Positions 42,901-63,793 of a DNA stretch of 64,000 nt are shown piece after piece. The notes beneath the pieces were generated by a model that saw only the letters and a list, made by a program, of their open reading frames with translations, searched no databases and was not told the DNA's origin. The stretch is from assembly GCA_000727475.1 (NCBI GenBank), contig KL647300.1, forward strand, positions 812,472-876,471. The letters run 5' to 3'. Numbering within the stretch: position 1 is the first letter of the stretch; the number at the start of each line of letters is the position of its first letter. This DNA comes from Sarcocystis neurona. Taxonomy: Eukaryota > Apicomplexa > Conoidasida > Eucoccidiorida > Sarcocystidae. Made by a program: the position numbers and the translations under genes.

Positions 42901-43690
42901 TGGAAAGCCCGCGGTACTCGAGGACATTGAAAGCTCTAGTCACTGTAGTAAGGCCCCAACGCATCTGCGCGAAGATTTTTCACGGAGAGGTAGCTCCTCT
43001 GAAAGCAAGTCCTCCCCCGCCGGGGGCTCATTTCGTCAAAATATGGTTGCTTCTCCTGAACCCAGGAGTGTGCCGGACGCAGAGGCACAGAACAGGGCTG
43101 CATTGTCAAACGGCTTCACCGGTGCTGCTGCTGAGAAGGCGGGCTTGGGGGAGACGTCGACAGCTGCCCGAGTTCTTGGAGCGGCGGAAGCTGACAGTAT
43201 GAGTACGGAATCTGCGGCTCGTTTTCAGGCTGTGTCAGCAAAGGCAACAACCTGGATAGACGCTACCGCCGGCGAGACCGACATCCTCACACATGAGTCT
43301 CACAGCTTCTCTCCCGGGAAGACAGATCCTTTTTCACAGCCAGGAAAGACGCCTTATGGGTTCCGGCGCACCAGCGAGTCGTGCACCGCATCGGGAATGG
43401 CGTTAGCGGCAGCAACGGCAGAAGACGACAACGAGATTTTACGTGTCGATTCGCAGCTGGGCTCGCCCGGACCCGCAGCAGCAGAGAGTCCAGGCAATCC
43501 CAGCGCAAAGGATCAGATGCCAACATCAAAGATGACGCTGCCCATAACTTGCGAGAAGGAGAGTTGGCAGCGGCACGAGGGTGCTCGCGAGGGTCGCCGG
43601 TGTTGTAACAAGGATTCTCATCTCCTTTTGTCTCGTCTGCAGACGGCGAGCACATCAGCAGAAAGTAAAGACTTACTGTTTACCCCTTGA
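39987..43690 (+). CDS. Giant low-complexity protein, downstream exon (stop at 43690)
   Basis: The open frame runs from before 39923 to TGA at 43688-43690. The exon start is placed at 39987, because TTCTTTTTTTGCCGCTTCCT leads into CCCGCAG at 39986. Joining 38891 to 39987 gives a phase-1 junction (A|GA, Arg) and a combined protein of about 2,690 residues. An alternative acceptor is CTTTTCAG at 39910. The start of this exon is charged and helical (LEEYQEGMEEKRQYAKDQQA), likely a coiled coil. The middle is acidic and Ala/Thr-rich, with one hydrophobic helical island (FALYAKLLAMGILPIESVSA, near 41338-41400). Later parts are Gln/Arg/His-rich. No recognised domain. Confidence 0.75.
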
Positions 43691-45709
43691 TACCCAGCAC
43701 AGCTACGCACACGTGGAAAATCACTCCTCTAAAATACATACTCACCGTTAGTTGAAAATGCTGAGCAAGACCCGTGAAGGGCCGCTTTTTTTTGGCGGCT
43801 ACCCAACTGGTCACCCTATCCACTGCGTGTTAGACTTTGTGTTTCTGCGGTCACTCCGGGATTGTTTGCAGTTGTGCGTCAGCGCTGCACACGGATAGAT
43901 ATAACTGTTCTAGTCGTGTCCGCAAAGTACTTGCAAGCAGACAAGCTCCGAGGTTAGAAAAAATGGAACGAACCACAAAGCCGCACAGGTGTCGCTGTAA
44001 CGGGGGATTTGTCGGGTGACACCTGCGTGCACTAGCGCCTTTCTGAGGCACTGTAGCAAAGCGCGCCCAGCTGTGTGATGCGTTACAACCAGTTACGCGA
44101 AGTGACAAACAGGTACAAATTTCTCCCCCCAGACGAGCACAACTGTCGCCATTCAGGCGATAGGGACCAGCCGCCAGCGTGTTCAAAGATGTGTCTCTCT
44201 AATTGCGGAACCAATTGACGCACGCGGTCTGTACAAACGATTCTTGCTCGCAGCAGGAAGTAAAAGCCAGCAGGCTTGCGAAATTGATTTTGCGTGTGGC
44301 ATCAGAAGCCTGTCCAAATGCTCCCTAGAAGCTGTACGGTTAAAGATTTCGTGTTGGTCCGCTTCTGCTGCGAACGTCTTACGCAGCCTGCACCTAGGAG
44401 TGCAAAGCAGTACCGGCTTTCACTATGAGCAACGTTGGAAAGCAAGACAAGCGTTAGCTAGACATGTGCGTGTCTTTCATGCAAGGGAGAACAGTAAACC
44501 ACTTGACTGGCAAATGACGACGCTGGGGTGGTGTATCTGCCTGCAGGAAGCTCAAATCGAGAAACGAAGAGCCGAGAAGAACGTGAACAACTGCTGCTCT
44601 CGGCAACAAGACCCGTACGTGCACACATCTACTCTTTTAGTGAGGAAACTTCACAACACACACACATGTACAGATGTTGCCACTTGTGGCTACGTAAAGG
44701 TACTCATTTCAAGTGAATTTTCGCGTACCTCCGGGGTCTTCCACACGCGTTTGAGTACTTAATGGTTTTGCACTGACAGCTGACTCAGTCAAAATAGTAC
44801 TAGTGAGACATGCAGGAGAGCACACTGAGGCGTTTGCGGATCCCAGTGCTGTGCTGCTGAAAAATTCATCTTTAGGTGTTGCTCACCCTACGTCCTAGCG
44901 TCCACTCGCCGCTCTTACCTGCAGCAACAGCAGCTCATTGGGTCATCGTTCTTTGTCTGTGTACGAATGGGCAAGAGCAATTTACGAAGAACCGCTACCT
45001 ATATTTCCGGTCAAAGGTTTGCTTAGCTTGGCGGACAAACGTATTGCTGCATGAGCAGACTTGCGCGTACGTGCAGAGCCCGTGTAGGAATGCCGTAGGG
45101 ACAACACGTCTTGCTTTGTAAAGCGTCTCTGGGCCACACTAGCAGGCAACGATTCTATCTGCGGACACCGGATATCCCACGTTTCTACGTCAGTTAGCCA
45201 TGTTTCCAACCTCAACCGGCGTTACAACGCAGCAGCCGCTTCCAAACGCTCCAATGGCTGAAGCACCGCTTCGTATGCCAGTGATGTCAACCACATGTGC
45301 ATAGGGAAGCTCTGCTGCACACGCTCGACGCTTGAAGAATGTGCTTCACAGAGTAGAGTAGAAGAGAAGAGAATGGCTGTGCCAGCGTTTTGTACAAACG
45401 CTACAGCGCAGTTTTCGCAGCCTAAATAGGTTGAACATGAAGAAATAATTGTAGCTAAATTTGAGGGTGTGTTGGAGCGCTCGCGTGTACATCCTGTGCT
45501 GCCAGTCTTACAGAAAAAAAAAGGCTGCGCCGTTTCCTTCATCGGCCAGTTCCTTCATCCGCCAAAGTGTTCCCATGTGGCACCCTGGCGGAACGCGTTT
45601 TCACCAGCATTGACTGCTTCTTCTGCCACGCCTGGATGCCGGCCTGCGAATTCCATCTGTAAAGTCTTGTGTTTTGTGCAATCTCCGCTGTGGAAACGTT
45701 TTGTTTCAG
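43691..45709. other. Spacer and possible upstream exons of the TTLL gene
   Basis: A 172-codon plus-strand frame (44244-44762) and an overlapping frame (about 44560-44716, SREEREQLLLSATRPVRAHI) look partly coding. They could be first exons of the TTLL gene, whose conserved N-terminal motif starts at 45710, but no splice link was found. The rest shows nothing definite. Confidence 0.35.
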
Positions 45710-48700
45710 ATTTTCTCTGGCATCTGCCCACCTGCGCTAAAGGAAGCGCTCCGTAAACGAGGTCAAGCCACCCTACACCACATAGTCTTGGCGGTTGTTT
45801 CCGGCAGGCCCGCACAACGGCCGTCAGAAGTCGAGACAGAAACAAAAAGTGTAGATGCTTTAACTTGGTGACAGAGACAGAGAAACACAACAACTGTGCA
45901 GAGATTTTACTAGATGACAGGGGTCGACAAACAAACAACTCGGATTCAGCGCTGAAGACGCAAACGTACCTACGTGGGCAGTTGTCGAATTTCTGCGCGT
46001 ACCTATGATGCACACAGATATATACATATATACAGATAAGCATATGCAGACGGTAACGGAGCGCTTGTACCTGTTGCTAGAGCCGGCCACTGATAGCTCG
46101 TTGACGGTGCCGACACAAACGAGTACAGCTACCTCCAGAACGGCTGAATTGTGCACAACATCGCGAACAAGAAGAGTAGCGACCAAACTGGGTGCTAAAC
46201 ATGAGAGAGAAACGTGAGGACCGTGTTGAGTGTTCACTTTTCGTACCCCTTTCTGCATAGCACCTTCCTAGACAATCTGAAAGCTTGCCGTTTTGCACGT
46301 CTTCATTCGTCGCTGACAACTCACGCTCGTGTACAATTACTTCTCCGTGATTGTTCGTCTACGTACCGTATCCGTGCAAGTGTGCGCACGTGTCATAGAG
46401 AAAGACGTGTTTTGTATCTTCGCTAGTGCATAAAGAGTTTTGAAGCAGTGTCTGTTACATTCCCAGCTGCTGTCGCGTATAATCCATGCACAGAACAAGT
46501 TTTTGTCCCTGAGTGAAATAACTTTAACTGTTGACGTTGCCGCGTCGTGTGCTACTGTAGGATGGGAGGAGAATCCTGATGGTCTAAGCAGCTTCTTCCA
46601 TCTGCGGTGGCTGCCAACAGTAGGAGCTTTGGCGCAGTTGAAAGACCTGGCGCGCGCTGAAATGTACGCAGCTACTCCCGGGGTCCAGAGCAGCAGTAGC
46701 TGCCGTATCGGCAGCAGCAATAAGAGCAAGAGCAGCAGCACGTCGTGTGAGAAGAACATCACGGGAGCCAAATGCGTAACAAGTGCTCGACACGGCAACT
46801 CCAGATTTGGCAAGGACAACAAAACCGGGAACACTACTGCTAGGGCACACGGACGCTCGACGGGCTGCATTCCACCGGTTAGTGCCGCTCCTTTCCTTTC
46901 TGGATTCTCGCTCTGGATGGTCACCAGGAAAAACGTGGCGCTACCTGGGTCGGCAACCAGAAGTAAGCGAACGAGTCACACGTCCATACACATCTCCTGG
47001 TTGCACAATTTATAAATGCCTACTGCTATCAACTGGGTGCGGGTGGATTTTGCAACAAAAGCTCCTCTCGCCTCCCACGCAGCAATATATAACAATGCAA
47101 CTGTGTGGCAGTGAATAGAGTGTCTGCAGGAAAGCTTTTCGTGAACTGGAATACAGCTTGATGAAACGGTAAAAAAAACCAGGCACGGGCGCCTTATTGA
47201 TACACATGTAAAAGGTAGACGGAGACTCCGTGTAGCTCGATCTCGGAAGCACTTTTTGCTTCCGACATACAGCTGTGCTTCAGCACAGCTGTAGTAGCCG
47301 TGCCCCGTATCACACGTACATCATCAGGAACTTGGATACGGACAGAGGCGCGCTTCACAACAAGCGACGTCCTAATCAATCAGTTGTGGGGCGTCGGTGC
47401 GTAAAGCTCCTAAACACTCTCGAAAATCACAGCCTGCGCGTTTGCAGGCTACCACGGAACACCTAAAATGTGACTTACGAAACAGGTGCAGACTCGCATG
47501 AATTTTTCTTCCCCGTGGTCCTTGAAAAAAACAGTTGCGTGCTGGAAACTCACCACCTCACTTCAACGTACGTAAGTGTGAACCTGCCGCTGGTATAGCA
47601 GGAAGAAACAGAAGGATCAGAAGTCGCCTTCATTAACCTTAAGGCCACAGAAGAACATTTGTGAACTTAATGGTGTGGAGGCACAGAACGGCAATTAAGG
47701 CACTTGTAGCAATGAAGTCTGACTGTGGACAAGTGCTGCGAAAGTGCTGTAGGTCAAGACTGTCTAGCGTCTTCCTACCTGCCTCTTATTCAAGCTCTGC
47801 ATACGTACGTGTGACGGCACATGCGGGTTTGCAACTTTGCATATCGCAACAGGTAGATTTATACAGGTATAGCTATCCACTTAAGGAAGACTCTTGGACA
47901 GGGCTTGCCACAAATCTGAAGTCGCAAAGCCAGGGAGCCACCCGTACAAAAGGCCAGCCTGTGTCTCTCAGCAAGAGTAGGATCAGGGTCATTTTTCCAC
48001 GAGAGAGTCCTTTCCTGTGTTCCTGCGGTTCCTGCACCCCTGTACAATCACTTGCTTCACATGCGTGGAGGCGAGCACGCGAAACACCTGCAACCGCTTA
48101 GCAAGAAAAGCGATGGCACTGCTGTCTGGGGTGCGAGCGATGTCGATTACAGCAAAGGGTGAAGAGGAGCCACTACTACGCTGCCAAATAACAAATTCTT
48201 TCCCAGACACTACCGCGCTTACGACCCGAGTAAGCTCGCGTCAGCGATTCTGCTTGCAACCTTCGCTGGTATAGGCACTTGTTTCCCAAGAAAAAAGGAC
48301 TCATCAAAGATAGTTTGCTTCGTAGAGTAGACCGGGATACAGGGGGATCTACATGCGTTCGTTCGCATTCGCTCGCAGAAACAAACATAACTGAGTATGT
48401 AAACGCGGTTGTACTTCTCACGCAACACCCCGTAAGTATGTCCTAAATTTGGAAGCAGATATTGCCGCGCCGGGAGACGATTTCACACTCGGTCAAGCGG
48501 AGTGTGTTTTGAACCTTTTTTTTTACGCGTTCGAGAGAAACGTGTACGTCTACATTCAGCTGCGAGTGAATCCAGCGGGACACGTGCGGTTGATAGTGCC
48601 GCTTCACACCTGATTGGGGCTGGACTTGCACACACCGGATTCATCTTCCACCGTTGGCACAGAGCAGCAAAATTCTAGCATTCCGTTTACTTGTATAACG

Positions 48701-51700
48701 ACGCATCCAGAAGGCACACGAAAGTAGGACGCAAAGGCTTATGGCCGCCGCGAATTGAAATGCATTCGCGCTTTCTGTACAACGATGGCCGTGTTTTCCC
48801 CCTGTGCGCAAGAGAAACTACACCACCTCGAGAATGTACGTAGCTGCTTTATTCAAGAAAAATCCTTCCCCTGGGTATCCAGCATGTGTCCTGCTCTGTA
48901 CTCGTAGAATTCTCTCGCGTTGTGCTGCTTGTGGACTGCAGGGTCTGCTGCTGCGTCACTTGCAGCTGCAAATGCCTTTTTTCTTTGACAAACTACACCT
49001 TGAAATAACACCTCGGGCGTATGTCTTAAATTTGGAAGAAGACATTGCAGCGCTGCGCGACGATTTTACGCTTACTCAAGCGGAGTGTGTTTTAAAGCTC
49101 TTTCTTCTCAGCTTCTGCGTCCAACAAGCGAAACGTCAGGTCGCTCTAAGCAATTTGCCTAGCAACGGCGGAGATGGTCACCACGTTCTGGAAGACCCCT
49201 GTAATAACGCTGGTGCATGCCGAAGTTCTCGTTTCCCTGAACTACCTCCTGCGTTCCTCGCTTCAGCCGATGACGTCTCGCCGCTAGCTCATAGATTGCG
49301 CCCTATCTCCATGGAAGGGGTAGCGCAAACAACAGCGGCACCTGGCACAGCGACTCTCGAGGCTGCAGTTGCACGTGGAGCAACAACTAAAGCTGAGGAT
49401 TTCTCTGCAACACATTTCGGTGCCACGCCAGTGAAATTTCCAGAAGCGCTGCGTGTCCCAGAAAAACCGAAGACATCAAAGCTGCCACAGAGTGGTTTTA
49501 CTGCAGTCCCATCAGGACAGACCGCCACGTCAACAGAGCCCTCTTCGACCTCAGCGAAAAATATGCCCTTCCCTCGAAGCCCGAGGGAAGAACCTCCATA
49601 TTTTGAGGCATCTTTTGCAACACCTCGCTCCCCGCGTGCGGAGAATGTGACGTGCGAGAAGGCCGAACTCTGCACCATAGGCATGAATACTAACGTTACG
49701 ACTCTGGGATTCGAAGAGTGTATGACAGACGCCTTCCAACGAGTCGCTGATTCGAGGTTATCGAAAGGCAGACACACGGTTGCGAAAGGTGAATATTCGC
49801 AGGCTTTACATTTGTGTGAACGCGCCCATTCGCACGATCAGATTGAGACAGAGGATGAAGCTGTCAGCAAACAATTCTTCAATGACCGCAAGAAGGTTAC
49901 CAACAGGGAGGGTGCATTCCTCGGAGAGAAACACTTACTCCGAGAAGAAACGTATTGCACCGCTTCAGAAAACGTACATCCGGAAGTCGCAGAAAGTCCT
50001 CGAGTGGAGAACGCCCAAAGGGGCAGCTTTAGTCCACCTGTTGCGGCGGACGTGGAGTACGATCCCGGCGGGCCTACCAAGAGGGACAGCTGGGTGAGAA
50101 GACTTTTCCAGCAAAACGGAAGTAACAGAATTGAAGAAGCAATGGAACGCTTAGATCCTCGTTCCGTCAAAGCTGCTATTTACGTGACTGCGAGAGCAAG
50201 AGCCCACCAATCAAGGAGTGTGGAGCGTTTTGACTGCCCTTTTGCCAGCGCCGTCGAGCTGCGCCAACTTGAGGCCGTGAGTTCAAACACGCAGGCAGAT
50301 GCACAGTACAAGCGATAGCATCATTGCACCGAACACGTGAAACGTCACTAACTGGGTCCACGCGCAGTGCTGCACAACCCGCATTCAGCCAGTGGAAAAC
50401 ACTGGTACTAAGCTGGATCGTTGCGCGCGGAGAACTAGGACGGGCGGAGAAGACGGAAAGAAGGATCGCAGCAACAACCGCAGTACGCAGCCACAGAATT
50501 ATAAGCCATTTTAGCAACAGCAGAAGCACGCAGAGGAGTAGTGCAGTGAGCGCATCAAACAAGAGTCGTAGATCCAATGATATAGCCGCACAAAAGTCGC
50601 CAGTGGCAGGGGCCATGCCAGCGAAACAAGACTCACACCATCCAGAGTAGCAGCGGCTGTAGTAGAGAAAAACGACCCTAACGTCGACCACAGCAGTACG
50701 GCTACTGCCAAAAGTGTACCTCCTGCTTTGAAGAGAGCAAAGGTAAACGACCCTAATGTCGACCAGAGCAGTACGGCTACTGCCAAAACTGTACCTCCTG
50801 CTTTGAAGAGAGCAACAGCGATAGTGGCGAAGACGTCTGCAACGAATCAACGAATGTTAGCATTCCTGCAGTGAGCTGAAGGAGTGTTAAACAGAAGCTG
50901 CATTATGTAGCGCACGAAAACGTAAAGACCATACCTTAGGGCTTGGTTTCCGCAGCGCCAGACTCTGCCTATTTGCACAGTTGAGCGCAACTCCGCTACC
51001 GTCCCTCACAAATAGAATGTTTCACCTGCAGCGACCCCTTATGTTGCAGACGACTTGCCAGCACCGGTCTGGGATACTCTCAGTCCCTGGCCGAAATATC
51101 ACACGTGACACAGAATTGAATTCTGGATGGCTTGGTGTCACCTTCATGTATAATTCCTGAAAAAACAGATTGGTGTACGTAGCTAGGCACTTGTATAAGC
51201 GCTTTTGCACGTTAGGACGTACAGGCAACCATTTTCGCATATATACGTCCAACGATGTCAGACGCGCACACGGAGCATTTAGGGTTTGAACAAGAAATTT
51301 GGTACAGGTGTTCTATGAACACGGTAATTTCCACTAGCGCGCAGCATACATGAAATGTATAAAGTAGGGAACGTCCTCCCGTATAGCTTCACATAGCCAT
51401 AACCCTACGTGTACGTTCGCAGGCCGAGCCTTAGAGTAGGGTGGAAAGTTTCAGACATGTCTGCACAGTTACACGCATGCACGTTACGTCCCGACGCGGT
51501 CACAAGGGCGCGTGACCCGCGTTTACAACCTGAGGCAACGTGGTCTGTGTCCCACGAAAAGAAACCTGCACGTACATAGTCTCACCATGGATAAAACCGG
51601 CGAAGCGCCATCTCTTGTGCGTGGGCGACACGCAGCGGAGAAGGAAAGATTTTTCCACTCAGGTGCTGTGAACCAGCTTCTGCTTTGCCATGCAGGCTCC

Positions 51701-54700
51701 CCTGCGTTTGCTGTCAGCGTTGGACATGAGCGAGGCTGACCACGTGATTACTGAAATTCTTCCGGAAATCCTGCGTGCTCCGGAAAGCGTAACAATGCAC
51801 CGTTCGGGAGAGAGGGAGAAGAAGACTTCTTCTCAAGCTCACAAGCAACAGCAAGATTGCGGGGAAACCCACCAAACGCAGCAGCAGGACGCAGTAAGCA
51901 CACACAGTCATCAACAGCTAGTGCGAGCTCTACAAGAGCCAGACACGCAGCAGCTGCGACATCTACAACGCTTTCAAGAAAAAGTGCTACAGGAATCCTC
52001 GGTCACAGGAGTGGAAAAGGTGGACTTTCACTCCTGTCTTGGCAAGAAGACAGAAGAAAATGAGGCTTCCATGTGCTTCCGCTACCACGACACACATCCA
52101 CCTCCTGTGGAGTTGGAGCAAAATGCCCAAACAGGGAAGGTCAACGGGGAGCTCGAAAGTAGAAGAGAGAAGGGGGCAGACGTGGGAAGACCGGAACGAG
52201 AGAAACGACTCTTCAAGGGAAAAGACGATGGGACACTAACTGAATTTGCGGGGGCCCGTAGAAGGGAATCGACGAACCTCGAAGAGCCAGATGGAGGCGA
52301 TGGCGGCAGAGAAACAGTAGTTTATTTGGACGAAGTAGCCGAAGAGGTAGGCGGTGAGGCAAAAACACAGCGAAGGCCACTTAAGAGAGCAGAGTCCTAC
52401 TCGAGGCAAAAACTTCGCTCGCAAAACAGCCTTGCAGCTCCTAGGCTTGTTGACGTGCCCGCACTGGTGAAAGAGGCTGCGGGCGCGCTGGCCTGGCTCC
52501 GCAGCAGGCAACCGAGTTTGTCACAATTTTTCGTGAACGGTAAGGCATACAACTGATATATGAGGTTGCTGCTTTGACCCGCACATGCGGACACATAATT
52601 ACTTTTACTGCACGCAAAAACTCCTTTTCCGCTGCACAGTTGCAAACCCCTTTTTGCTAGGCAGTGCATCTGCAGTTCCATTTATCGAGGCGTATAGACA
52701 CACTTTTGTATGCACACTCGAGGTTTTGAAAAAAAGTGTACGCGTCACACGCCGTTCTCTGTATGGATCTATCTCTGGCTGCATCGCTGCTTCACTGCTG
52801 GTCTGCGTATACACGCTGCACGTCCTTCTCTGTATAGATCCGTCTCTGGCGACATCGGTGCTCCACTGCTGTTTTGGGTCGCACGTCCTCCTCTGTGTAG
52901 ATCTGTGTCTGGCTGCATCGGTACTCCACTGCTGTTCTGCATATACGCATCACAAGTCTTTCTCTGTGTAGGTCTGTCTCTGGCGGCATCGGTGCTCCAC
53001 TGCTGTTTTGTGTCGCACGTCCTTCTCTGTATGGATCTGTGTCTGGCTGCCTCGGTACCCCACTGCTGTTATGCGTTTACGCATCGCACGTCCTTCTCTG
53101 TATGGATCTGTGTCTGACTGCCTCGGTACTCCACTGCTGTTCTGCGTATACACATTGCAAGTCCCTCTCTGTATAGATCCGTCTCTGGCTGCACCGGTGC
53201 TCCACTGCTTCCTTCATGTACACGTGTCGCACGTACGTTTCTGTATAGGTCTGTCTCTGGCTACGTCAGTGCTCTACTGGTGTATTCTTGAGTGTTTTAC
53301 ATTGAGGCGCTACACCGTGTACACATCCGGGTAATCTAGGGTGGACGAACAAATGGATCTTAAAATCTGCGGACGGACGTGGAAGGCAGTTCCAGTGCGT
53401 GCACGATCGCCTGGCGGATGTGGAGAAAACGGTGCGCCAGAAATACGGACCGCAACTGCTTGCTCAAAAGTTCGTCGAAGCGCCACTACTGCTCCAAGGG
53501 CGCCCAGTCACTCTGCGCCAGTGGGTGCTCGTCACATGCTGGAATCCTCTCACGGGTATGTGGCAGTGTACGGATTACAGGCGTCTTGAGCTGAGGTCTC
53601 TGCCAAAGTGCCAGTAGCGATGCTCGGAACTCATGCGCACTCGTGTGCTCGCAGCTGACTGGGAAACTCATACGCAGCTGGTTCTACTGGGTATATTCTA
53701 TGCATGCCGGAGCTGTACGGAGCAAAAATAGCCATATGCGTCGCCAAACCAGGAGCGATACAGAGACGTTGTGCAGGTTAGTTGAGGCATCGAGAACTTT
53801 TTACCGTCAACCACTTTAGCGATGCAAAACTGACTTGATTTGTGTGTCTCTTCCACGTGCGCTGTTAAAGCGCTGGGGGTGCAACGTCGTAAACACTGCT
53901 GAAAGTGGGGATCTGGCAGTAGTAATCCACCGCATGCCCGTGGGCGTGTACGCCGCAAAAAAGACTAAGGCTAGGAAGTCTTTTTTTTTTGCCGTCGAAC
54001 TTTTGCCCATATATTTCACGCACCCTGTCACCCTACGGCAGGTGCCACAGTGGACTGTCACATGGCGGACTCCCCGTCAAGGCATTCTCACGTATCGTGC
54101 ACGACAGAGCTTGCCTTTTCCCAGTTTCTATAGCGTTCGCACTCTGCCGGCGCAGGCCGGAAGCCTTCTGGAACGCTGCAGCGTGTATATCGGTTTCGCT
54201 CGTCCGCCGTACGCAACACATCCCCTGCTCTGTGTGCAGTACGCCCTCCGTTCTCCAGCCGTTTTGGACAAAGAAAGAATACCTTTGGCTAAATCTACAG
54301 ATGGGTACCTCTCCGACTGTCCTATGCAGCGCTAGTAACCTACGTAATAGGTCTGCTGTTCAAATGCATAGAAAGTGACCACGCCTGTGATAAGCTTCCA
54401 GATCATTAGTGCTGCATAGAAGTATGCCGTGTAGTGTTGAGAATCTTGTGGTAGACACATACTACTCGTCAAACTGCTTCTTGGGGAAGGACCACTTTTA
54501 AAATGGAGCACCAAAAATATCTAAGTCAGTGTTTTACTTGGTTATCCAATTTAAGGCTGTTTTCATGCACAGCCAATCTTTACGTCTGAGATTTTGTGTA
54601 GGAGTTTTCACGCCTCACACAAGCATAGTTGTGCACGGACTGACCGATGAGGGCCAGGGAAGCAGCTGGTCTTGCACCAATTCGCTCTAAGGTTTATAAT

Positions 54701-57613
54701 GTAACCCAAATACCGTAGGCGGGGAGGTCTCACAATCGGGATATACAGCCTTTATTCTTCCCCGTGAAGGTCGCGTACCCATTTTTCTACATCATAGTCA
54801 CTGTCGAGGCTTATGTTCTCTAACTGCAGATGCTCTTCTTGACGCCTTTCGGCTTGTAGAGTTCTGCTGTACGAAAAGGTGAAGCGGAGAGAGAGTTTGC
54901 CCGTACGCTATTCTTCGGATATAGGTGTAGATACGTATTTCTGCCTGTGCGTACGGATCCGCGCACAAGCACACAGGTGTACGTCAGTGGTTGTCCACGT
55001 TGCTGCCTGTTCCCAAGAGGCGGCATCTGACGTTTGACCGATTATACAGACTTTCGTACTGCGTCATCACTTGTGGCGGCTCCACCAGCTGCGCCTGCCC
55101 TCCTGCACTTTATTTTCTGCTTCCTCACTTCGCTGCGCCTAGCTCTGTTACGCCGAATGGCTCGTGTCCTCCAACGCTGCTGTCCTTACCCTGCATTTTG
55201 AATCTTGCTCTGATTTTCTTCTTCGCCTGTGACTTATTTCAGTTTGGACATATCGGAAGAACCTGATGCGCTTTACCGGAGGTCCAGAGGGTGCCTCCGG
55301 CAATCCATGCGCCTGCGGGGAGGCAATAAACTCGTGAGGATGTTTGTCGACTAGTTCCAGTAGTGCAGCCCCAACAGCATCACCATGCAGAAAAAAGTAA
55401 ATTTCTGCAATATGCCTGGCAGTGCAAGTATTTTGATAGGCTACTCAAAGGCGACACTTGCTGTGACCACACCCTTACGCGGCTGTAATTAAATTGGTGT
55501 AACGAAATAGTACACCCACACATCGACCTGGCATTTAGTTACTACGATTGCTGATAGTGGTCGTAGTAATAGTACCAAAAGGAGTGCGAGTCGGTGTGTA
55601 CTAATGGAAGGCATTATTTGTGTCGTTCGTCTCAGAAGTAGTTGTTGTGGTAATACTTGCAGTACCAGTAGAGGCTGTGCTGGAAGGAGGCTCCCACATA
55701 CGATGGATGAATGGAATGTAGTGGATCACCAAGCATTTGAAGCCGCTGAACGCCCATCAGAAGAAGCCTGCAGTTCGCTAAACTAGGAATAGCTGTCCAG
55801 GCGACTAAGTTGGTACCCCAAACCTTGAGACGCTCTACTGTAAATTGCATCAACGTGGATACAGCAACGCTGGAATTCTACGACACTATTCGTCGACTGG
55901 TTGAAACAGCATCACTCGACGGTGACGGCCTGATTTCATACTGCGATTGGTACAGAATCAATTGTAGAGGGGGTGTAGCGCGCTGATTTGACTTTGCGAT
56001 TGAGACAGTATTGATAGTTGACGTAGTGGCAGTAGATCGACCGACGAGAAGATATGGCATTGACAGGGAGGATTGATGTGTGCTTTTGACAGTCTACTGT
56101 CTGCAAAAGCGTCACTCTAGCTGCATCTGTTGTTGTAGTTTTATTGTACAATAACCTTCACCCGCAGCAATTTTTGTCGGACGCATTCTCCAATTTGTTA
56201 CTTTGTCTTCCGTTGGAGCTGTCCTGTCAACGGAGATTTCGTACAGGCAAGAATTGCACGGCATCGACAACCTCTGTAGGGCTTGCAGTTGGTGTCATCA
56301 CATATGCCAGAGCGGCGCGTTATTTATTGCTCTCATGCACCACTTATTCCTCTGCTGTATTCGCCCGACCTTTTTTGATGGTACTCTTAGCTCTAGGGAC
56401 GCACCCTGGAGTGAGTTGATCAAATTTCCCCTGCATATTCTGGTTGTGAAAACGGGGTATTTCCTGTTGCGACTCCTTCTTTGTACGCAGTGTGTCGCGC
56501 CGTAACTCATTTCAACAAGGGTCGCTGTTCACGTGTCGTGAACACGATTCTAACAGCAGCAACAGCAGGGACGCGGACTGTGTCCACCAGCCAGATTGCG
56601 CTGCACCGGAGGTAGGAGATTTCCTAGCTGCAGTGAATCTATGTTCTCTCAAAAACTACTCAGTCGCTTTTCCAAGTCCTCTGGAGGGTTCACTTTCAGG
56701 AGGTTTTCAAGCACTAGCAAAGGGTGACTCGGATACGAAGTTTGTGATTAACACTGCAAGTACGCTTGTCAATTCCACTTGTAAGCAGAAGCACGAATTC
56801 ACGAAGCTAGCGGAGCTGCATGGCGTGAACAAGGCTCCTGCAGGAACTGTGTATGACACTGGCTGTATGCCTTGTCTCCAGTGCGTCCCCGCTCCTTTAT
56901 TCGCCTCGCTGTGTTTTTTGCCGGCGGCGCTTATCCCGCCGGACGTTGGCGTTCCGGCACCCACCGGACTTGCGCTCCCACGAAAAGCAGTCCGACAAAA
57001 CTGTACCTGTGTTTTTTCAAGCTCGTACTGCACCTACACATATATATATATATGTATATACGTATGTAAACGCGTGCGTATCCGCGGTGGCGTGGGCAAA
57101 ATACGCAGGTTCGACGTTTTTATGAGGGGGTCGAGTACATTTAGCTTCCTTTCCTGATGTATCTTCAATGAAGCTGGAACGGCCCACTTGCAGTAGAGTG
57201 AACTGGTCACATTTTACACGCGTTCACACTTTCAACAATACCTGATTAGTACATGTTCCGCTGCTGCAAATTTGTGCCTTGTGGAGGAATCCGTGTGTCA
57301 CCTTATGTGTTAGGGCTCGACATTCGCTCGTTGGTCCGTCAGTCTGCGCGACTGGATGGAAGAGATTTTCGGCGAAGACCTGTGGCAAACGATTTTGTAC
57401 CCCCAAATAAAGTGCACCATCGCCGAAGTTTGCAAATGCGTCCAGCAGGAAGTTGTTGGGCGGAACAGTTCTCACGAGCTTTTCAGCTTTGACTTTATCA
57501 TTGATGCCACAATGAAACCGTGGCTGTTAGACGTGGGCCGGTGTCCCGAATTCGGAACAGTTTCGTCAAACGTACGCACAAACACACAGTTTCACAGCCC
57601 TTGCGTGAAATAG
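45710..57613 (+). CDS. Tubulin tyrosine ligase-like protein (TTLL3/TTLL8-type), possibly inactive
   Basis: TTLL enzymes ligate amino acids to tubulin; the TTLL3/8 clade glycylates axonemal tubulin. Exons: 45710-45761 (IFSGICPPALKEALRKRG), 46561-46962 (WEENPDGLSSFFHLRW), about 48960-50276 (YVLNLEEDIAALRDDF), pieces at about 50515-50877, about 51696-52539, 53340-53613 (NKWILKSADGRGRQF; FVEAPLLLQG; VTLRQWVLVTCWNPLT), 56491-56848, and 57314-57613 (WQTILYPQIK; ELFSFDFIIDATMKPWLLDV). These match, in order, the RGW/FDLRW region, the ADxxFFPRxY-type region and the ATP-grasp core of TTLL3/8. Junctions 45761/46561, 52539/53340, 53613/56491 and 56848/57314 agree in phase. Active-site positions differ: FDxR is VTLR, TDWNPL is TCWNPL, and the metal-binding ExN is DVG. 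Long disordered inserts enlarge it. First exon(s) and the 46962-48960 link are missing; 57571 may be a donor to a further exon. Confidence 0.8.
47244..47450. repeat. Cluster of three perfect hairpins
   Basis: CGGAAGCA (47244-47251) pairs with TGCTTCCG (47257-47264) over a 5-nt loop. TACAGCTGTGCT (47268-47279) pairs with AGCACAGCTGTA (47282-47293) over 2 nt. AGCCTGC (47431-47437) pairs with GCAGGCT (47444-47450). They lie in a gap between confident TTLL exons (46962 to about 48960), where one exon is expected but was not found. Confidence 0.7.
48426..48640 (+). pseudogene. Extra, diverged copy of a TTLL internal exon
   Basis: KYVLNLEADIAAPGDDFTLG then QAECVLNLFF at about 48434-48525 closely repeats AYVLNLEEDIAALRDDFTLT then QAECVLKLFL at 49018-49107. 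Nucleotide similarity starts at about 48422 (AACACCCCG against AACACCTCG) and fades after about 48540. The copy stays open from just after a TGA near 48392 to a TGA near 48611, ending GHVRLIVPLHT. It has no clear acceptor of its own. It is probably a dead duplicate exon; a mutually exclusive alternative exon is less likely. Confidence 0.75.
50674..50822 (+). repeat. Two-copy tandem repeat, 75-nt period, coding in phase
   Basis: CGACCCTAACGTCGACCACA through CTTTGAAGAGAGCAA is repeated with about six changes. In the plus frame it encodes two 25-residue units (NDPNVDHSSTATAKSVPPAL, then KRA; second copy NDPNVDQSSTATAKTVPPAL). The stretch ends at TTCCTGCA|GTGAGC (50877), a strong donor, so it is probably an exon of the TTLL gene's disordered region. 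The minus-strand reading is a shadow. Confidence 0.7.
52540..53339. other. 800-nt TTLL intron filled by a minisatellite
   Basis: Donor AACG|GTAAGG at 52540 and acceptor TAATCTAG at 53339; both flanks are phase 1 and rejoin a motif that is continuous in the TTLL family. It contains the 52757-53282 array. Frames through the array stay open for 100-130 codons by chance of the repeat and should not be called genes. Confidence 0.7.
52757..53282. repeat. Minisatellite, about 7.5 copies with 71- and 63-nt units
   Basis: The unit begins CTCTGTATGGATCTGTCTCT then GGCTGCATCGGTGCTCCACT and GCTGTT. It continues either as TGCGTATACGCATCGCACGTCCTT (71 nt) or as a version shortened by 8 nt (TGTGTCGCACGTCCTT, 63 nt). 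Unit order is 71, 63, 71, 63, 71, 71, about 73, then a truncated copy. The first four units form two 134-nt dimers, implying duplication of a dimer. Confidence 0.9.
53614..56490. other. Large TTLL intron with possible decayed duplicate
   Basis: It has no confident exon. At 54027-54075 the plus strand reads HPVTLRQVPQWTVTW, resembling RPVTLRQWVLVTCW of the real exon at 53501-53542 (nucleotides CCAGTCACTCTGCGCCAG against CCTGTCACCCTACGGCAG). A hairpin CCGGAGG/CCTCCGG lies at 55276-55300. The remainder is unremarkable. Confidence 0.45.
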
Positions 57614-58676
57614 CAGTGACATGCAGGGATCAGCCAACTGAATTGGGCAAAAAGAATAATGCAGCAGCAGGAGCCCACGTAGTCACAGAGACTCGTCTTA
57701 CCATTGACCTGTAGCATTTGCAGTAGTGACAATACTAAGTGTTTTAATGGTGTTCGTGCATCCCGTCACGACCAAATAACGCAGATGCTCAGAAGAGGGC
57801 AAGCAGTATTTTTCGAGATGCCAGAACCGTCATAAGACTACGCGGGCACCCACGTAGTCTAAGTGGAACCCCTCGCATTCACGAGTTCTTCTTCTCTCCT
57901 TTGCCACATACCTACTGGTAGACAGCAACCACTAATAGTGACCGTTCTATTGATATTGACCGCAACCACGAACAAACAATTGTGTTTTGTGGGGCAGTGA
58001 GAGCGCTAGTTTGGCAGGGTATGTCGGTTTTCACTGAACTCCCAAGTCCACCGATGCGGGCATGCCGAACTACCAGCCATTATATGCGAACGCGAACTCG
58101 AGGCAACTACGCGTGTGGCAGGTTGATCCCGAGGGAGACCCGAGTCGCAGACGAGCTTGAGAAACAGCGTAGACAGTGCAGTCCTACCTGCAAGCACGAG
58201 GGTGCCCGCAGTCGGTCACCGCACGGCCGTCAGACTCTGATGTCGTCCAAAGATGGTTTCGAGTGAGAGACCTTTGTGACCGTTCGCATACTTCTACAGA
58301 ACCACGGATGACAGGATAGCCGTATTAGTGGTTCAGACTGCCAGAGAGGTTCGACTGCTGAAATAGACTCTGCGGATTGATGCAGAGTCGAGCGTCGCCA
58401 CACTCCGACGTTCCCTCACGTTACCTTGATGCTCCAAGCATGCTACTTCTGAGTGGGGACCATCCAAGCACGCTAGTGTTGAGAACAAAGCATCGTGGGG
58501 CAAAGCGCTGAAGTGTTCTCGACACTGTCTTTGGCGTGGCGTGTCTCTTTGTGTTAAGCAGTGCGAATCATATTCCAGGGGCAAAGCATCTTTCTGAGGT
58601 ACTTGTACGTAAGAGAGAGCATTTTTGGCGTGTTGTGCGCTTTTCGGTACTGCTTATCGCTTGTCTGCCACCGCAG
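57614..58676. other. Spacer between the TTLL gene and the small-exon gene
   Basis: It contains a perfect 8-bp inverted repeat, AGACTACG (57835-57842) with CGTAGTCT (57853-57860), and short frames such as 57982-58266 whose composition (MFCGAVRALVWQGMSV) is not persuasive. Upstream exons of the next gene could be present. Confidence 0.4.
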
Positions 58677-61600
58677 CGTCAGATTAACCGGCTCATTTCT
58701 TTGTGCCTCGAGGACGTCTTAAAGGTGAGCCTTGCACCATAGCGAAGAAAGACAGCCCTCATGTACTTTGGAACAATGTTGAGGTTTTTGTGTGCATATC
58801 AGGGTGTAGCCACCAGGACACTTGTGTTTCTGCAGAGCCAACGCACGCTGAATGCGTGCGAGGCAGACACGCTGCTCGCAGTACAGCTCAGGGTGCGTCC
58901 CTCAAATCGAACATTCTCACGTAATCCACGTGAAGTAGTAGAGTCGCAGGAACATCCAATATTAGCGCGTCCGCCCAAGAAAAAAAATTGATGAAATCAG
59001 AACTGATACCCCTGAAAGAAAATTGCCCCCATAAGCCTGAAGAACCCCTGTTCCGGGGCTGGCTGCGAAGTCGTCCCTGTTGACAATTTTTGACGAGCCG
59101 TCTCTCGTCCGAGTTTGTCCGACTTTCCTACCGCTGAAACCCAGAAGTCCGAAAAGACTCTTGTAACGTAGATATGTTGCAGAAACGTTCTGAACGGGCT
59201 CCGTAAGTGAAGTCTGTGTACTGTACCTTGTTTCGCGGCTAAACGTCACGCCACAGGCCATGACGCTTGATGGCCTGGCGTTGTTGCGCTGCTTCCAGTA
59301 CTTCTCTTCTGCACTTTTGATCGGACGCACAAGTCTAATGCATAGTAGGTAGCGGAACAGCTGCACACGGTTAGACGCCACTGGTTCTTTTTCTTCTGTC
59401 TATATATANNNNNNNNNNNNNNNNNNNNNNNNNNNNNNNNNNNNNNNNNNNNNNNNNNNNNNNNNNNNNNNNNNNNNNNNNNNNNNNNNNNNNNNNNNNN
59501 NNNNNNNNNNNNNNNNNNNNNNNNNNNNNNNNNNNNNNNNNNNNNNNNNNNNNNNNNNNNNNNNNNNNNNNNNNNNNNNNNNNNNNNNNNNNNNNNNNNN
59601 NNNNNNNNNNNNNNNNNNNNNNNNNNNNNNNNNNNNNNNNNNNNNNNNNNNNNNNNNNNNNNNNNNNNNNNNNNNNNNNNNNNNNNNNNNNNNNNNNNNN
59701 NNNNNNNNNNNNNNNNNNNNNNNNNNNNNNNNNNNNNNNNNNNNNNNNNNNNNNNNNNNNNNNNNNNNNNNNNNNNNNNNNNNNNNNNNNNNNNNNNNNN
59801 NNNNNNNNNNNNNNNNNNNNNNNNNNNNNNNNNNNNNNNNNNNNNNNNNNNNNNNNNNNNNNNNTATATATATATATATATATATATATATAAGTATGTG
59901 CATGATATCCACAGTTTCAGCCTCAGTATTCTCTTTACCTTTCTCGCTAGCCACGGTATTGTTACTATTCTGTTTTCTCTTCTCGCTTCCTTCCACCCTG
60001 AACAGTACTTCGTCATCCGGCGGAGCCTTCCCCTATCACATTTGTCACTTCAGTGTTGCAAAATTTCCCCGCCGCAAGACCTCAGCGTGCCAGTCTTCAG
60101 ATCAGCGCAGGCGCTAATTCAAAACACAGTATGTGTATTAAGAAAATCCTGCCGCCTCCAACTCTTCTACTTGAGGATCATGCAAAATTTCGTCTTCTCT
60201 TTCACTTCGTCTGCTGTTCCCGCCCTTCAGGTCGTGCTCGACTGGGCCGCAGCGGAGAACGATGAAGAGGCAAGCGAAAGGCATTTATGCTTTTGTACGA
60301 ATGGAGGGTTTTTCCAATTGTGGAAGTGCAGCTTATGCCTGTTCACTTTGAAAAGTGAACGGACGAAAAATTGAACAGTTGGAATGCCTGCATGCGCAGA
60401 AAATAGTCAGCTCCCGTGTGTACAACGGCACATGCGGAGTACTGACAGAAACACTTTCACACAAATATGTGCACAAAAACACCATTCTAATGCGTATCTA
60501 TGTGCTTTAAAAGGCCTCTGGCTGTGTCTGTGGCGTATCTATCTTTTAAAAAAGAAAAGGTAATACAACTGGCTACAATTTCCGAGAAAAATTTCCCCAA
60601 TTAGAAACGTACACCGTATCAGATGCCGGCGCATCGGTTAGGCACGTAAAGTAATCAATCGTGTACGTGAGGACATGGTTAGTGGTGCTCCTGTGCCATT
60701 CTCTCGCATAGCTGCAAATACACACATTGACACGTGTGTGCGGAGTAAAACAAACGAAGTGCGTTGGAATTTCCCGTCAACCTGGAATTTTGTGCGTTTT
60801 CTATGAAACTTCGGCTGTCGTTTCTGCAGAAACGCCTCGTGGACACTGGACTCTTCGAACTAGTATTATGGGAAACCGTAGGCAGTTGCGACGACACGAC
60901 ACCCAAATGTGCTGGATGCGGGGAAATATGGTGCTCAGTCTGGCTGACACACACGACTGCGGAGTGCTAATAAAGAGCAAAGAGTTACTACCATCCCGAG
61001 TGCACATCAATACAAATGCCTAAGTAACTCTGTGTGAAGCCGCGCGACGCCTCGTCGGAGTCACACACTTCCTTACGATAGTGTGCTACCTCCCACGTCT
61101 CGTTTGCTGGGATAAGTGTCTAAGCAGTCGAGATAAGTAATTATGGGACAATCCACCAGGCACGTCGGTGTTCGCAAATTTTCTCTTACACGAGAGGAAA
61201 GAAGGGGGAATGACAGATAACGACAACCGTCTCCCACATATTCCCAAAAGGTACCCGACGCTTAGAGAATGCAATTGCTTGTCTGTGCAGTCCGTGCTTG
61301 CCTCAATCGCCAGTACAACAGTACATATGTATAAATAGCTCTGTGTGAGTTCGTGCGACGCATCCTGCGAATCACATCCCTGCGTACGGTAGTATGTTGC
61401 CTTCCATATCGGCTTTGTCGGAATAGGTTATTTTGCAGCAATCCGCCAGACACGTTGTTCTTCGCAAATATCCCATAACACGGGAGAAAAGAAGGGAGAA
61501 TGACAGAGGGTGACAAGTTCCCAGCGTACATTCCCAGAAAGTACACGCAGCTTGAAGAAAACAATACGTTACATGCTCAGCACGTGCTTAGGTCCAAAAA

Positions 61601-62689
61601 TCTACTGGCAGTGCTCATATCAGCTTTGCAGTATAAATCGAGGCTTTTGTTTTTCAGGCGACGAGCAGTGCAGCCTCCATATGGGATAGGCGTCATCTTG
61701 GTAAGCGCATCTTTTAGCGGAAAAGTGACAAAAACTACTGGATGTCTACCGTTGAAGCATCTGCTTTGAACAACGGCATCCATCCGCGCGGCGGCGAGAC
61801 CCATGCATTGGCTGAAATAAAGCTGACAAATATAACTGCGTGAATAATCTGTATTATAGTGCTGCCGACACATGTGTACAGCACTTACACGCGGCTGTGC
61901 GGTGAACGCCTCATGCGTCGTAAGTACACACTTGCATGCATCAGTGCTTGTAAAAGAATTAATTAAACTGAGGTGACGGGGTGGTACGGCTGCGCCCACC
62001 TGCGACTCCACCGACGAAGATGCGACGCCTTTAAAAGGAAACGACTTGAGACAAGTTTTCTTAAATTCTAGTGTGTTGGGTTTTGACACTCTTCTAACAT
62101 GGTGCAACACTGTACGGGGTCGGCATCAGTATGCTGAAGTGTAATAGTATGTACGAGGGAAACAATAATAAGCCTTCCTCTCGTGCGGACTTGTGCGTGG
62201 GAAGTCCTGCACACTAATGCAGGAGCACATCCAGCAGAAATAAGCGGCGTGACAGCTACGAATTGGTTGTTCTGATAAAGCACTCCATTCGACAAGAGCT
62301 CAATTTTTTAAACTGTGATGTGAGATGAATGCTCGACACTGATGTGCCTCGTGTGTTGCATGACTTTTGCAGTGCTGCAAGGCAAGCGTGTGGCGTAGGC
62401 GAAGCCTCACACAGAAGTCAACAGCGTCCTTTGGTGAGACCGCTTGGCCAGGATAGAAAAAAGGAGGCTTCCAGAAGAAGAGAAAAGGGAACGAATCAAC
62501 GGTTCTAACAGTACGCCTTTCGTCTGCCTCTACCTCTGACTGAAGTGACGAGCTGGCTTTCCTCCCTTTTTTCTTGTAGGAAGATATGTACGAGCGAAAC
62601 ATGATGCAAGCCAACGTCTTTACATTTCCCAGCCGATCACAAGGAGGACGCTCCTTCTATTTATCATCCAGCCAGTCTCCAGTGTGTGA
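58677..62689 (+). CDS. Hypothetical gene of very small exons; partial model
   Basis: Exon candidates each have a good acceptor and donor. 58677-58724 reads RQINRLISLCLEDVLK; 60231 onward reads VVLDWAAAENDEEASERHL; 60830-60877 reads KRLVDTGLFELVLWET; 61658-61700 reads ATSSAASIWDRRHL; 62580-62689 reads RYVRAKHDASQRLYISQPIT and ends in TGA. Phases agree for 58724 to 60231 (0), 60877 to 61658 (0) and 61700 to 62580 (1). The link from 60231 to 60830 is unresolved because its donor is uncertain. The product is helical and charged; family unknown. The alternative frame at 62586-62831 (MYERNMMQANVFTFPSRS) is open, but its phase does not fit the 61700 donor. The assembly gap at 59409-59864 lies in the first intron. 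The 5' end is unknown. Confidence 0.45.
59393..59891. repeat. TA microsatellite containing an assembly gap
   Basis: Positions 59409-59864 are Ns (456 nt). The left flank ends in TATATATA (59401-59408) and the right flank begins with 27 nt of TA repeats (59865-59891). The gap is probably an unresolved TA expansion. Frames drawn through the Ns are meaningless. Confidence 0.95.
61030..61562. repeat. Two-copy direct repeat, about 230 nt each, 308-nt spacing
   Basis: Copies at about 61030-61262 and 61338-61562 share GTGCGACGC/GCGCGACGC, CAATCC..CCAG.CACGT, TTCGCAAAT and AGAAGGG.GAATGACAGA blocks with many substitutions and small indels. They lie in the intron between exons 60830-60877 and 61658-61700. 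Minus-strand translations of both are similar but have no splice support. Confidence 0.75.
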
Positions 62690-63550
62690 CAGGTGCCTGG
62701 AAGTTAAATGGATGTCCCGTACACTGTTCCCTACGGAACTTTCTTGCCCAACTACAGGATGCACGTTTCCTGATGACGAGGCTCCTGTGCTGATGCAGAA
62801 GGGCAGGGCAGTGCCTCACGTAAAGAGCTGAGATGATCCCGTACTTGAAAGCAAGGGTGCTGTTCGTCGACCTTGTTTCATGCGTGCGTATACTCTAGAT
62901 ATACGCGTGCGTCCACTCATCCCTCCACAGCCGGCTATAAACTTTCCAGTTAAGACTGACGCACATTTCATCACTTTTAACCTGCGGCAATTCAGCGTCT
63001 CCTGTGGTGAAATGGGGTGACACGAGATTCACCGCTCGGAAGGAAAGTTGGGCCACGCCCCGAACGCATTGGGCGGTGGCAAGTATGACTGCGGACATAG
63101 CGCAGCGTGTGTCAGGTTCGAGATTCGAAGCGGGCACGCTCTTGATTGACCGCCACTTCCATCCGTTAAATCGAAGGAATGCTACTGATGAAACCTTGCG
63201 CTCGTCATCACGACTACGATTCATACTGAGACATCGCGGAATATGGACCGAAGTGACTTTATATATGCAAATATTCGATAAGTTATGGAGCACATTCGAC
63301 GTGGTACCTCTGACTGGGCACAACAAGCACGTATATGTGTATATGTATGTCAACGTATATATATATACATATATATATATATGCGTGCGTAGATGCGCTT
63401 GTTCGACTCAGTAGTTGCAAACGGACGGAGCACGGGAAATCGCGATGTATGGGTCGTCTTAATCGTATGGCTTATGACTGTAGGAAGAAAAAAAGTAGTC
63501 GAGACAAAAGCGTAGCTCTGACTACACGACGCAGCGTTCAGGCGTGTTTT
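62690..63550. other. Ambiguous region with TA microsatellite
   Basis: Plus (63004-63414) and minus (63353-62895) frames are both open and neither is convincing. A TA-rich tract (TATATATATACATATATATA, about 63355-63382) is present. Confidence 0.4.
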
Positions 63551-63793
63551 GTAGTCGAGAAAGACAAATGGAAAAGAAGAGTGATCTACGGGGTGCGAGG
63601 GCACTCTCTGGAAATACTGTATCGTGGGAATACCATTGCTGCGGGCCGCCAGCAATTACTGCATATAGGGAAGCCCGTACCAGCATGCACCGCATGTATT
63701 CTGCAGCTGTACAAGCGCCACGAAACTGCCAGTGAGATTGTTGACCAAATTTTGCCAGCGAACACGGTACTGCCAACATTTCGGCTTTGTTGA
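63551..63793 (+). CDS. Probable terminal exon, unknown protein
   Basis: The acceptor CGCAGCGTTCAG precedes 63551, and the frame runs 80 codons to TGA at 63791-63793. It reads ACFVVEKDKWKRRVIYGVRG, then HSLEILYRGNTIAAGRQQLL, with a later CTACILQLYKRHE and end VLPTFRLC. Composition is typical of a compact folded domain. It could be the last exon of a gene starting around 63.0 kb, or a continuation of the small-exon gene if the 62689 stop is skipped. No family recognised. Confidence 0.45.
   Translation, partial: VVEKDKWKRRVIYGVRGHSLEILYRGNTIAAGRQQLLHIGKPVPACTACILQLYKRHETASEIVDQILPANTVLPTFRLC

What the first reader, a model, noticed from the sequence alone, without database searches (positions are those of the whole stretch)
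53340..57613. TTLL3/8-like ligase with altered active-site motifs: possible pseudoenzyme
The exons align across the whole TTLL3/8 ATP-grasp core. However, the conserved D of the FDxR motif is Thr (VTLRQW, 53507-53524), the D of TDWNPL is Cys (TCWNPL), and the metal-binding ExN near the C-terminus is DVG (57530-57538). The HLxNNSxQ-like segment is also degraded (LVNSTCKQ). Losing several catalytic positions while keeping the framework suggests a structural microtubule or cytoskeletal role, or a new chemistry.
Basis: partly seen in the sequence, partly recalled or inferred. Interest (0 to 1): 0.75.

Follow-up and report, generated by a model that had tools for sequence, protein, structure and literature searches.

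The report
Conserved dead tubulin-modifying enzyme in coccidia
A parasite gene that looks like an enzyme adding glycine to tubulin has lost much of its ATP-handling machinery, and so has the version in a related parasite, so it probably now does a non-enzymatic job.

Summary
The gene is real and lies on the TTLL3/8 (tubulin glycylase) side of the TTL family; the best solved match is TTLL3 (5vlq, E 1.4e-23). A missed exon (55243-55333) brings back a conserved arginine segment, and the gene runs on past 57613 and begins by about 45.7 kb.

Corrected, the pseudoenzyme reading gets stronger. The window keeps 12 of 24 near-invariant TTL columns; the six other TTL loci of the same genome keep 23-24 of 24. 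An orthologue in Cystoisospora suis (43% identical) keeps 14 of 24. Both have changed a glycine of GxGI, K/F/D of KFDxR and N of ExN, and neither has a recognisable HLxN loop. The replacements differ between the species, which argues against a new fixed active site.

Best reading: a conserved, non-catalytic, TTLL3/8-derived protein that binds microtubules or tubulin. The binding role is inferred; there are no activity or expression data here.

The parts
45710..45761 (+). Probable N-domain exon (IFSGICPPALKEALRKR); start uncertain
   Evidence: Spliced alignment to C. suis P0005 VFSASCPPVIKTELLRR; no shuffle test was made
46561..46744 (+). N-domain exon (GWEENPDGLSSFFHLRWLPTV...)
   Evidence: tblastn with P0005, 46509-46739, E 2.3e-8; boundaries from spliced alignment
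48004..48229 (+). Possible exon ending in LLRCQITNSFPDTTALTTR; start uncertain
   Evidence: Spliced alignment to C. suis LLPYQLTNRFLDTSPLTTK only
48942..50276 (+). Exon: LLRHLQLQMPFFF...PRAYVLNLEED (TTLL3-type N-domain) and the conserved SVKAAIYVTARARAHQSR segment
   Evidence: tblastn with P0005: 48948-49121 E 5.5e-10, 50136-50279 E 1.0e-6; splice sites TGCAG and GCC|GTGAGT
51696..52539 (+). Exon ending LVDVPALVKEAAGALAWLRSRQPSLSQFFVNG, just before the ATP-grasp core
   Evidence: C. suis KEACDALHWLRDR; in phase with both neighbours
53340..53555 (+). Core exon with WILK, altered GxGI (GRQF), QKF, altered KFDxR (PVTLR), TCWNPLT
   Evidence: PF03133 2.6e-9; P0005 E 1.2e-19
55243..55333 (+).
   Evidence: tblastn; 0 of 1000 shuffles reach its score; not separated from chance in a broader test, 10 of 150
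56491..56743 (+). Possible linker exon; end uncertain (56743-56848); no recognisable HLxN loop
   Evidence: Splice phase fits; no motif above chance in 55282-57313
57314..57571 (+). Core exon with FSFDF (Asp kept), altered ExN (DVG), Pro of the P336 column kept
   Evidence: PF03133 1.1e-9; P0005 E 5.6e-17
58677..58724 (+). Exon RQINRLISLCLEDVLK
   Evidence: Aligns to TTLL3 5vlq RLCAEVQEDTLR and to C. suis; phase 0 on both sides
60231..60266 (+). Exon beginning VVLDW; true end uncertain (no donor at 60266)
   Evidence: C. suis KVVLDW; acceptor TTCAG
60830..60877 (+). Probable last core exon KRLVDTGLFELVLWE; start and end uncertain
   Evidence: C. suis DTGLFELIYR; acceptor CTGCAG before 60830

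Best explanation
A single-locus coccidian gene descended from a TTLL3/8-type tubulin glycine ligase that most likely no longer ligates. SHOWN by sequence: the TTL core and its TTLL3-type N-domain are present; GxGI, K/F/D of KFDxR and N of ExN are changed and no HLxN loop is recognisable; the C. suis orthologue has changed the same sites, mostly to other residues, while the rest of the core stays alike. INFERRED: the protein works without ATP-driven ligation. It binds tubulin or microtubules by the retained TTL surface, and acts as a scaffold or as a competitor or regulator of the active TTLLs. The life stage is unknown; the flagellated male gamete is a guess. The confidence given is for 'no ligase activity, kept for another function'; for the microtubule-binding step alone I would say about 0.45.
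For: Window keeps 12 and C. suis 14 of 24 near-invariant columns, 13 references 22-24; each reference on columns defined without it keeps 22-24 of 24-27; without the three badly aligned H, L, N columns window 12 and C. suis 13 of 21. Six other TTL loci of the genome keep KFDxR, HxxN, the Asp and ExNxxP in 6 of 6. Window and C. suis agree at 11 of 24 near-invariant columns and 88 of 207 others; four pairs of intact sequences agree at 22-24 of 23-24 and at 33-60% of the others. HLxN not above chance in the window, best C. suis linker score 3.2. Orthologue E 1.3e-60; the pair has 100/100 support. Open frame of 1027 codons over eight exon pieces. Precedent: TTLL12, proposed pseudo-enzyme lacking 2 of 6 predicted ATP/Mg motifs (PMC3520985, passages).
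Against: WI.K, Q of QK, both core arginines, the FDF Asp and (in C. suis) Glu of ExN are kept, Asp in the window: some nucleotide or metal binding may remain. No activity, expression or structure data. Pro of the P336 column, reported to anchor TTL to the alpha-tubulin tail (PMC10335831, passages), is Ser in C. suis, which speaks against plain tail binding there. The C. suis state rests on one predicted protein. Exon 55243 was not separated from chance in the broader shuffle test (10 of 150).
Confidence: 0.68

Rival explanations
1. Still an active ligase: a divergent glycylase or glutamylase that uses the retained Lys, Gln, Asp and acidic residue with a rebuilt nucleotide pocket, or a new chemistry.
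For: Retained WI.K, QKF, two arginines, FDF Asp, E or D at ExN; the TTL fold is kept (95.7 bits).
Against: Positions lost in both orthologues carry different residues apart from Y to F; GxGI, KFDxR and ExN-Asn are changed together and HLxN is not found.
Confidence: 0.15
2. A decaying gene: function lost, core drifting towards a pseudogene.
For: Long stem of the window + C. suis pair (1.45 changes per column) and long end branches (0.79, 0.73); no expression evidence here.
Against: Reading frame open over 1027 codons and eight exon pieces; 43% identity to C. suis across the core, plus a 50% identical segment outside it.
Confidence: 0.08
3. Artefact of assembly or exon choice; an intact enzyme is hidden by a wrong model.
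Against: KFDxR and ExN sit inside well-supported exons, away from joins; the same sites are changed in C. suis; the same method gives intact motifs in 6 of 6 other loci; no KFDxR or ExNxxP pattern occurs on the + strand between 45.7 and 61 kb; two genome searches with the core exons gave only this locus and weak matches.
Confidence: 0.06

Closest known systems
TTLL3/TTLL8 tubulin monoglycylases (solved: 5vlq)
   Same: Best solved match, E 1.4e-23 against 2.3e-10 for TTLL7; TTLL3-type N-domain; RQW.LVT.WNPLT.W.Y signature.
   Different: GxGI, KFDxR and ExN changed, HLxN not found.
Cystoisospora suis tubulin-tyrosine ligase family protein (P0005, 2228 aa)
   Same: Orthologue: E 1.3e-60, 43% over 84% of the query; 100/100 with the window; lost sites largely the same.
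   Different: Replacement residues differ (E for T, S for G, R for P); Glu of ExN kept, Pro of the P336 column lost.
TTLL12 pseudo-enzyme
   Same: TTL fold with several ATP/Mg motifs changed; GxGI lost in both (PMC3520985, passages).
   Different: TTLL12 keeps DIRY and EVN and loses FExxGFD; here it is the reverse. No SET match by Pfam in the window exons tested or in P0005.
Six other TTL loci of the same genome (L027-L032)
   Same: PF03133, same genome.
   Different: All six keep KFDxR, HxxN, the Asp and ExNxxP.

Membership tests
TTLL3/8 clade (by descent) | TTL domain above the Pfam cut-off | tested here: met
   95.7 bits against a cut-off of 20.1
TTLL3/8 clade (by descent) | Closest to TTLL3 rather than to TTL or glutamylases | tested here: met
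   5vlq first by 13 orders of magnitude; TTLL3-like side of the tree 96/94, place inside it open. The tree holds no named TTLL1, 2, 6 or 12 rows.
TTLL3/8 clade (by descent) | TTLL3-type N-domain | tested here: met
   46509-46739 E 2.3e-8 and 48948-49121 E 5.5e-10 to the N-domain of C. suis P0005
Active TTLL ligase | GxGI, KFDxR, HLxN, ExN | tested here: not met
   All four altered or not found
Active TTLL ligase | Glycine ligation to tubulin | not testable with these tools
   Needs protein
TTLL12 | SET-like domain before the TTL domain | tested here: not met
   No SET match by Pfam in the window ORFs tested or in P0005; a divergent SET-like domain could be missed
Pseudoenzyme (works like) | Fold kept, catalytic residues lost, in more than one species | tested here: met
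   Window and C. suis; fold judged from sequence only, no structure was modelled
Pseudoenzyme (works like) | Retained binding of substrate or partner | not testable with these tools
   Inference only

The most novel reading that the evidence does not exclude
Coccidia turned a tubulin glycylase into a non-catalytic reader or blocker of tubulin that selection kept while its ATP site fell apart, and that controls what the six intact TTLLs of the cell do, perhaps in the flagellated male gamete.
Probability: 0.3. Interest if true: 0.7.

Novelty: new variant of a known kind. Interest (0 to 1): 0.52.

Why it matters
A TTL-family pseudoenzyme is known (TTLL12), but the listings of my searches (one open-licence library, lists partly capped) showed no report of one on the TTLL3/8 side or in apicomplexans. 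If right, counting TTLL genes overstates what tubulin modifications some coccidia can make, and a glycylase fold kept without its ATP site becomes a clean test of whether TTLLs act by binding alone. A review lists six glutamylation-related TTLLs in Toxoplasma (its search was for glutamylation, so a TTLL3/8 there is not excluded) and says glycylation was not observed, in line with the tachyzoite having no flagellum (PMC10974701, passages).

Tried and rejected
(a) LVNSTCKQ as HLxN: at chance. My own alternative CSLKNYSVAF scores 8.7, also below chance level.

(b) My first exon-3 guess (VYIGFARPPYATHP, 54164-54238) was replaced by 55243-55333 after tblastn. Targeted test 0 of 1000 shuffles; whole-chain spliced-alignment test not significant, 10 of 150 shuffles reached the real score, and that run chose acceptor 57343 for the last exon.

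(c) Family-profile spliced alignment of the whole region placed exons at 33666-47976 and at 55539 and 56391 that I did not use; the C. suis run also placed low-complexity pieces (for example 52723-52971, 61658-63708) that I did not use.

(d) ORFs 34466-38911 and 39872-43690 as N-terminal exons: no significant match to C. suis (E 0.13 and 0.51). Not claimed.

(e) Orthologues in Toxoplasma, Neospora or Eimeria: none among the 4, 3 and 2 hits of three searches. These scored only proteins of about 581-1848, 865-2751 and 1225-3899 aa that share exact words (7995, 2234 and 1473 candidates; one search was capped), so absence is not shown.

(f) Structure prediction was not run: the joined window protein is not a contiguous translation and P0005 is longer than 1200 aa.

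(g) Rfam: nothing at gathering threshold in the window.

(h) Organism: no tool names it. A Sarcocystis-like coccidian is inferred from the 123.0-Mb assembly, 130.2 Mb tabulated for S. neurona (PMC10210345, passages) and the C. suis orthologue.

TTL residue numbers R202, R222, D318, E331, N333 and P336 come; K198, D200 and H239-N242, and any role of the arginines in tail contact, are recalled.

Full report
What was claimed.

Setting. The window is G000:C13:812472-876471 of a 123.0-Mb assembly in 74 contigs. No tool names it. The size, and a closest relative in Cystoisospora suis at only 43%, suggest a Sarcocystis-like coccidian (inference; S. neurona is tabulated at 130.2 Mb in PMC10210345, passages seen).

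The gene is real and larger than claimed. Two stretches reach Pfam TTL on their own and the corrected 300-aa core scores 95.7 bits. TTLL3 (5vlq) is the best solved match, 1.4e-23, against 2.3e-10 for TTLL7. Joined after NPLT it scores 23.3 against the family profile; the best of 1000 dinucleotide shuffles scores 22.6. A broader shuffle test of the whole chain was not significant (10 of 150 reach the real score), so this exon rests on the targeted test, its splice phases and C. suis VWLYKKAFVRL. The gene goes on at 58677-58724 (RQINRLISLCLEDVLK), 60231- (VVLDW) and near 60830 (KRLVDTGLFEL). Upstream it includes TTLL3-type N-domain exons (46509-46739, E 2.3e-8; 48948-49121, E 5.5e-10) and probably a piece at 45710. 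Eight exon pieces from 48942 to 60266 read 1027 codons with 0 stops in one frame; the other two have 36 and 41. I chose the ends 56743 and 60266; there is no donor at 60266. The ORFs at 34-44 kb could not be tied to the gene (E 0.13 and 0.51).

Orthologue. The second of three protein searches found C. suis P0005, 2228 aa, E 1.3e-60, 43% identity over 84% of the query. A search from P0005 itself returned P0005 and one algal protein, Pinguiococcus. All searches were limited by length and shared words, so absence elsewhere is not shown.

State of the active site. In an alignment with 13 references (seven outside proteins, six TTL loci of the same genome), 24 columns hold one residue in at least 90%. 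The references keep 22-24 of 24; tested on columns defined without them they keep 22-24 of 24-27, the lowest being L028 with 23 of 27. The window keeps 12 and C. suis 14 of 24. Without the H, L and N columns, where the two are not reliably aligned, the counts are 12 and 13 of 21. Lost in both: a G of GxGI (Q/R), Y of QKY (F/F), K (P/R), F (V/A) and D (T/E) of KFDxR, N of ExN (G/S). Lost only in the window: P of K-P, G before the Asp of FDF, E of ExN (Asp). Lost only in C. suis: an L (T) and the P of the P336 column (S). Kept in both: WI.K, Q, both arginines, the FDF Asp, W. No HLxN loop is recognisable: best window score 10.7 (168 of 200 shuffles reach it), best C. suis linker score 3.2, family members 21.8-34.9, the last favoured because they built the profile. 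On the + strand between 45.7 and 61 kb there is no KFDxR, ExNxxP or GxGI pattern. Genome searches with the two core exons gave this locus and weak matches only, the best being 3.0e-5 and 7.6e-5; those searches score best candidates only.

Controls. PF03133 gives 23 matches at seven loci of the genome. Read by the same spliced alignment, the six other loci keep KFDxR, HxxN, the Asp and ExNxxP in 6 of 6; some of their linkers were not resolved.

Why pseudoenzyme rather than new chemistry. Window and C. suis agree at 11 of 24 near-invariant columns and at 88 of 207 others: the catalytic columns are as free as the rest. Four pairs of intact sequences agree at 22/24, 24/24, 23/23 and 22/24 of them, and at 69/206, 130/217, 74/190 and 85/208 of the others. 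A new active site should show shared replacements; only Y to F is shared. In the tree the window and C. suis pair has 100/100 support on a stem of 1.45, on the TTLL3-like side (96/94), its place inside open. Loss before the two lineages parted is the simplest reading (inference).

Asp at the TDWNPL column is present in 3 of 13 references, so Cys there is no catalytic loss. LVNSTCKQ is not the HLxN motif. The end at 57613 runs past a donor.

What it most likely does. Shown: homology of the core and N-domain, loss of ATP/Mg motifs, conservation in two coccidia. Inferred: no ligation; binding of tubulin or microtubules, as scaffold or regulator. The arginines of the R202 and R222 columns, listed among critical TTL residues (PMC10335831, passages), are kept in both. 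Pro of the P336 column, which that paper says anchors TTL to the alpha-tubulin tail, is kept only in the window, which tempers the tail-binding idea.

Known relatives. TTLL12 is proposed as a pseudo-enzyme lacking 2 of 6 predicted ATP/Mg motifs; it keeps DIRY and EVN and has lost GxGI and FExxGFD (PMC3520985, passages). Here GxGI, FDxR and ExN are changed and FDF is kept, so this is no TTLL12 (no SET match by Pfam), though it may work like one. A review lists six glutamylation-related TTLLs in Toxoplasma, none TTLL3/8 (PMC10974701, passages). The listings show no report of this case; they cover one library and some were capped.

Verdict. Observation partly confirmed; pseudoenzyme reading supported; new chemistry unlikely. 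A new variant of a known kind that needs RNA and biochemistry.

Noticed in passing
window 48424-48523 and 49007-49106: Two copies of a 100-nt coding piece (PRxYVLNLEEDIAALRDDF), 80% identical; the upstream one lies in a predicted intron. Differences are mostly silent (11 silent, 9 amino-acid changing; pS 0.47, pN 0.12), so both may have been under constraint: possible alternative exon.
   Followed up: partly
window 50136-50279, C. suis P0005 residues 1733-1780: A segment outside the TTL core (SVKAAIYVTARARAHQSR) is 50% identical in the two coccidia; role unknown.
   Followed up: no
window 52736-53286: Eight imperfect copies of a 69-nt repeat inside the intron just before the core exon.
   Followed up: no
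window 50661-50810: Two adjacent 75-nt repeats, 91% identical, in a predicted intron.
   Followed up: no
window 61127-61226 and 61417-61516: Two 100-nt copies, 75% identical, downstream of the gene.
   Followed up: no
window 34466-38911 and 39872-43690: Very long open frames on the same strand (1481 and 1272 aa); the first has no Pfam match, the second only one far below cut-off; possible N-terminal exons of this gene, not shown.
   Followed up: partly
window 14126-15001: Open frame with weak EGF-like matches below the curated cut-offs and, to the eye, a hydrophobic stretch near its end; looks like a surface or microneme-type protein.
   Followed up: no
L032 (G000:C36:398500-406500): Another TTL locus with the RQW signature that groups with P0004 (99/97) and keeps its motifs; a candidate for an intact glycylase-like enzyme in this genome.
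   Followed up: no
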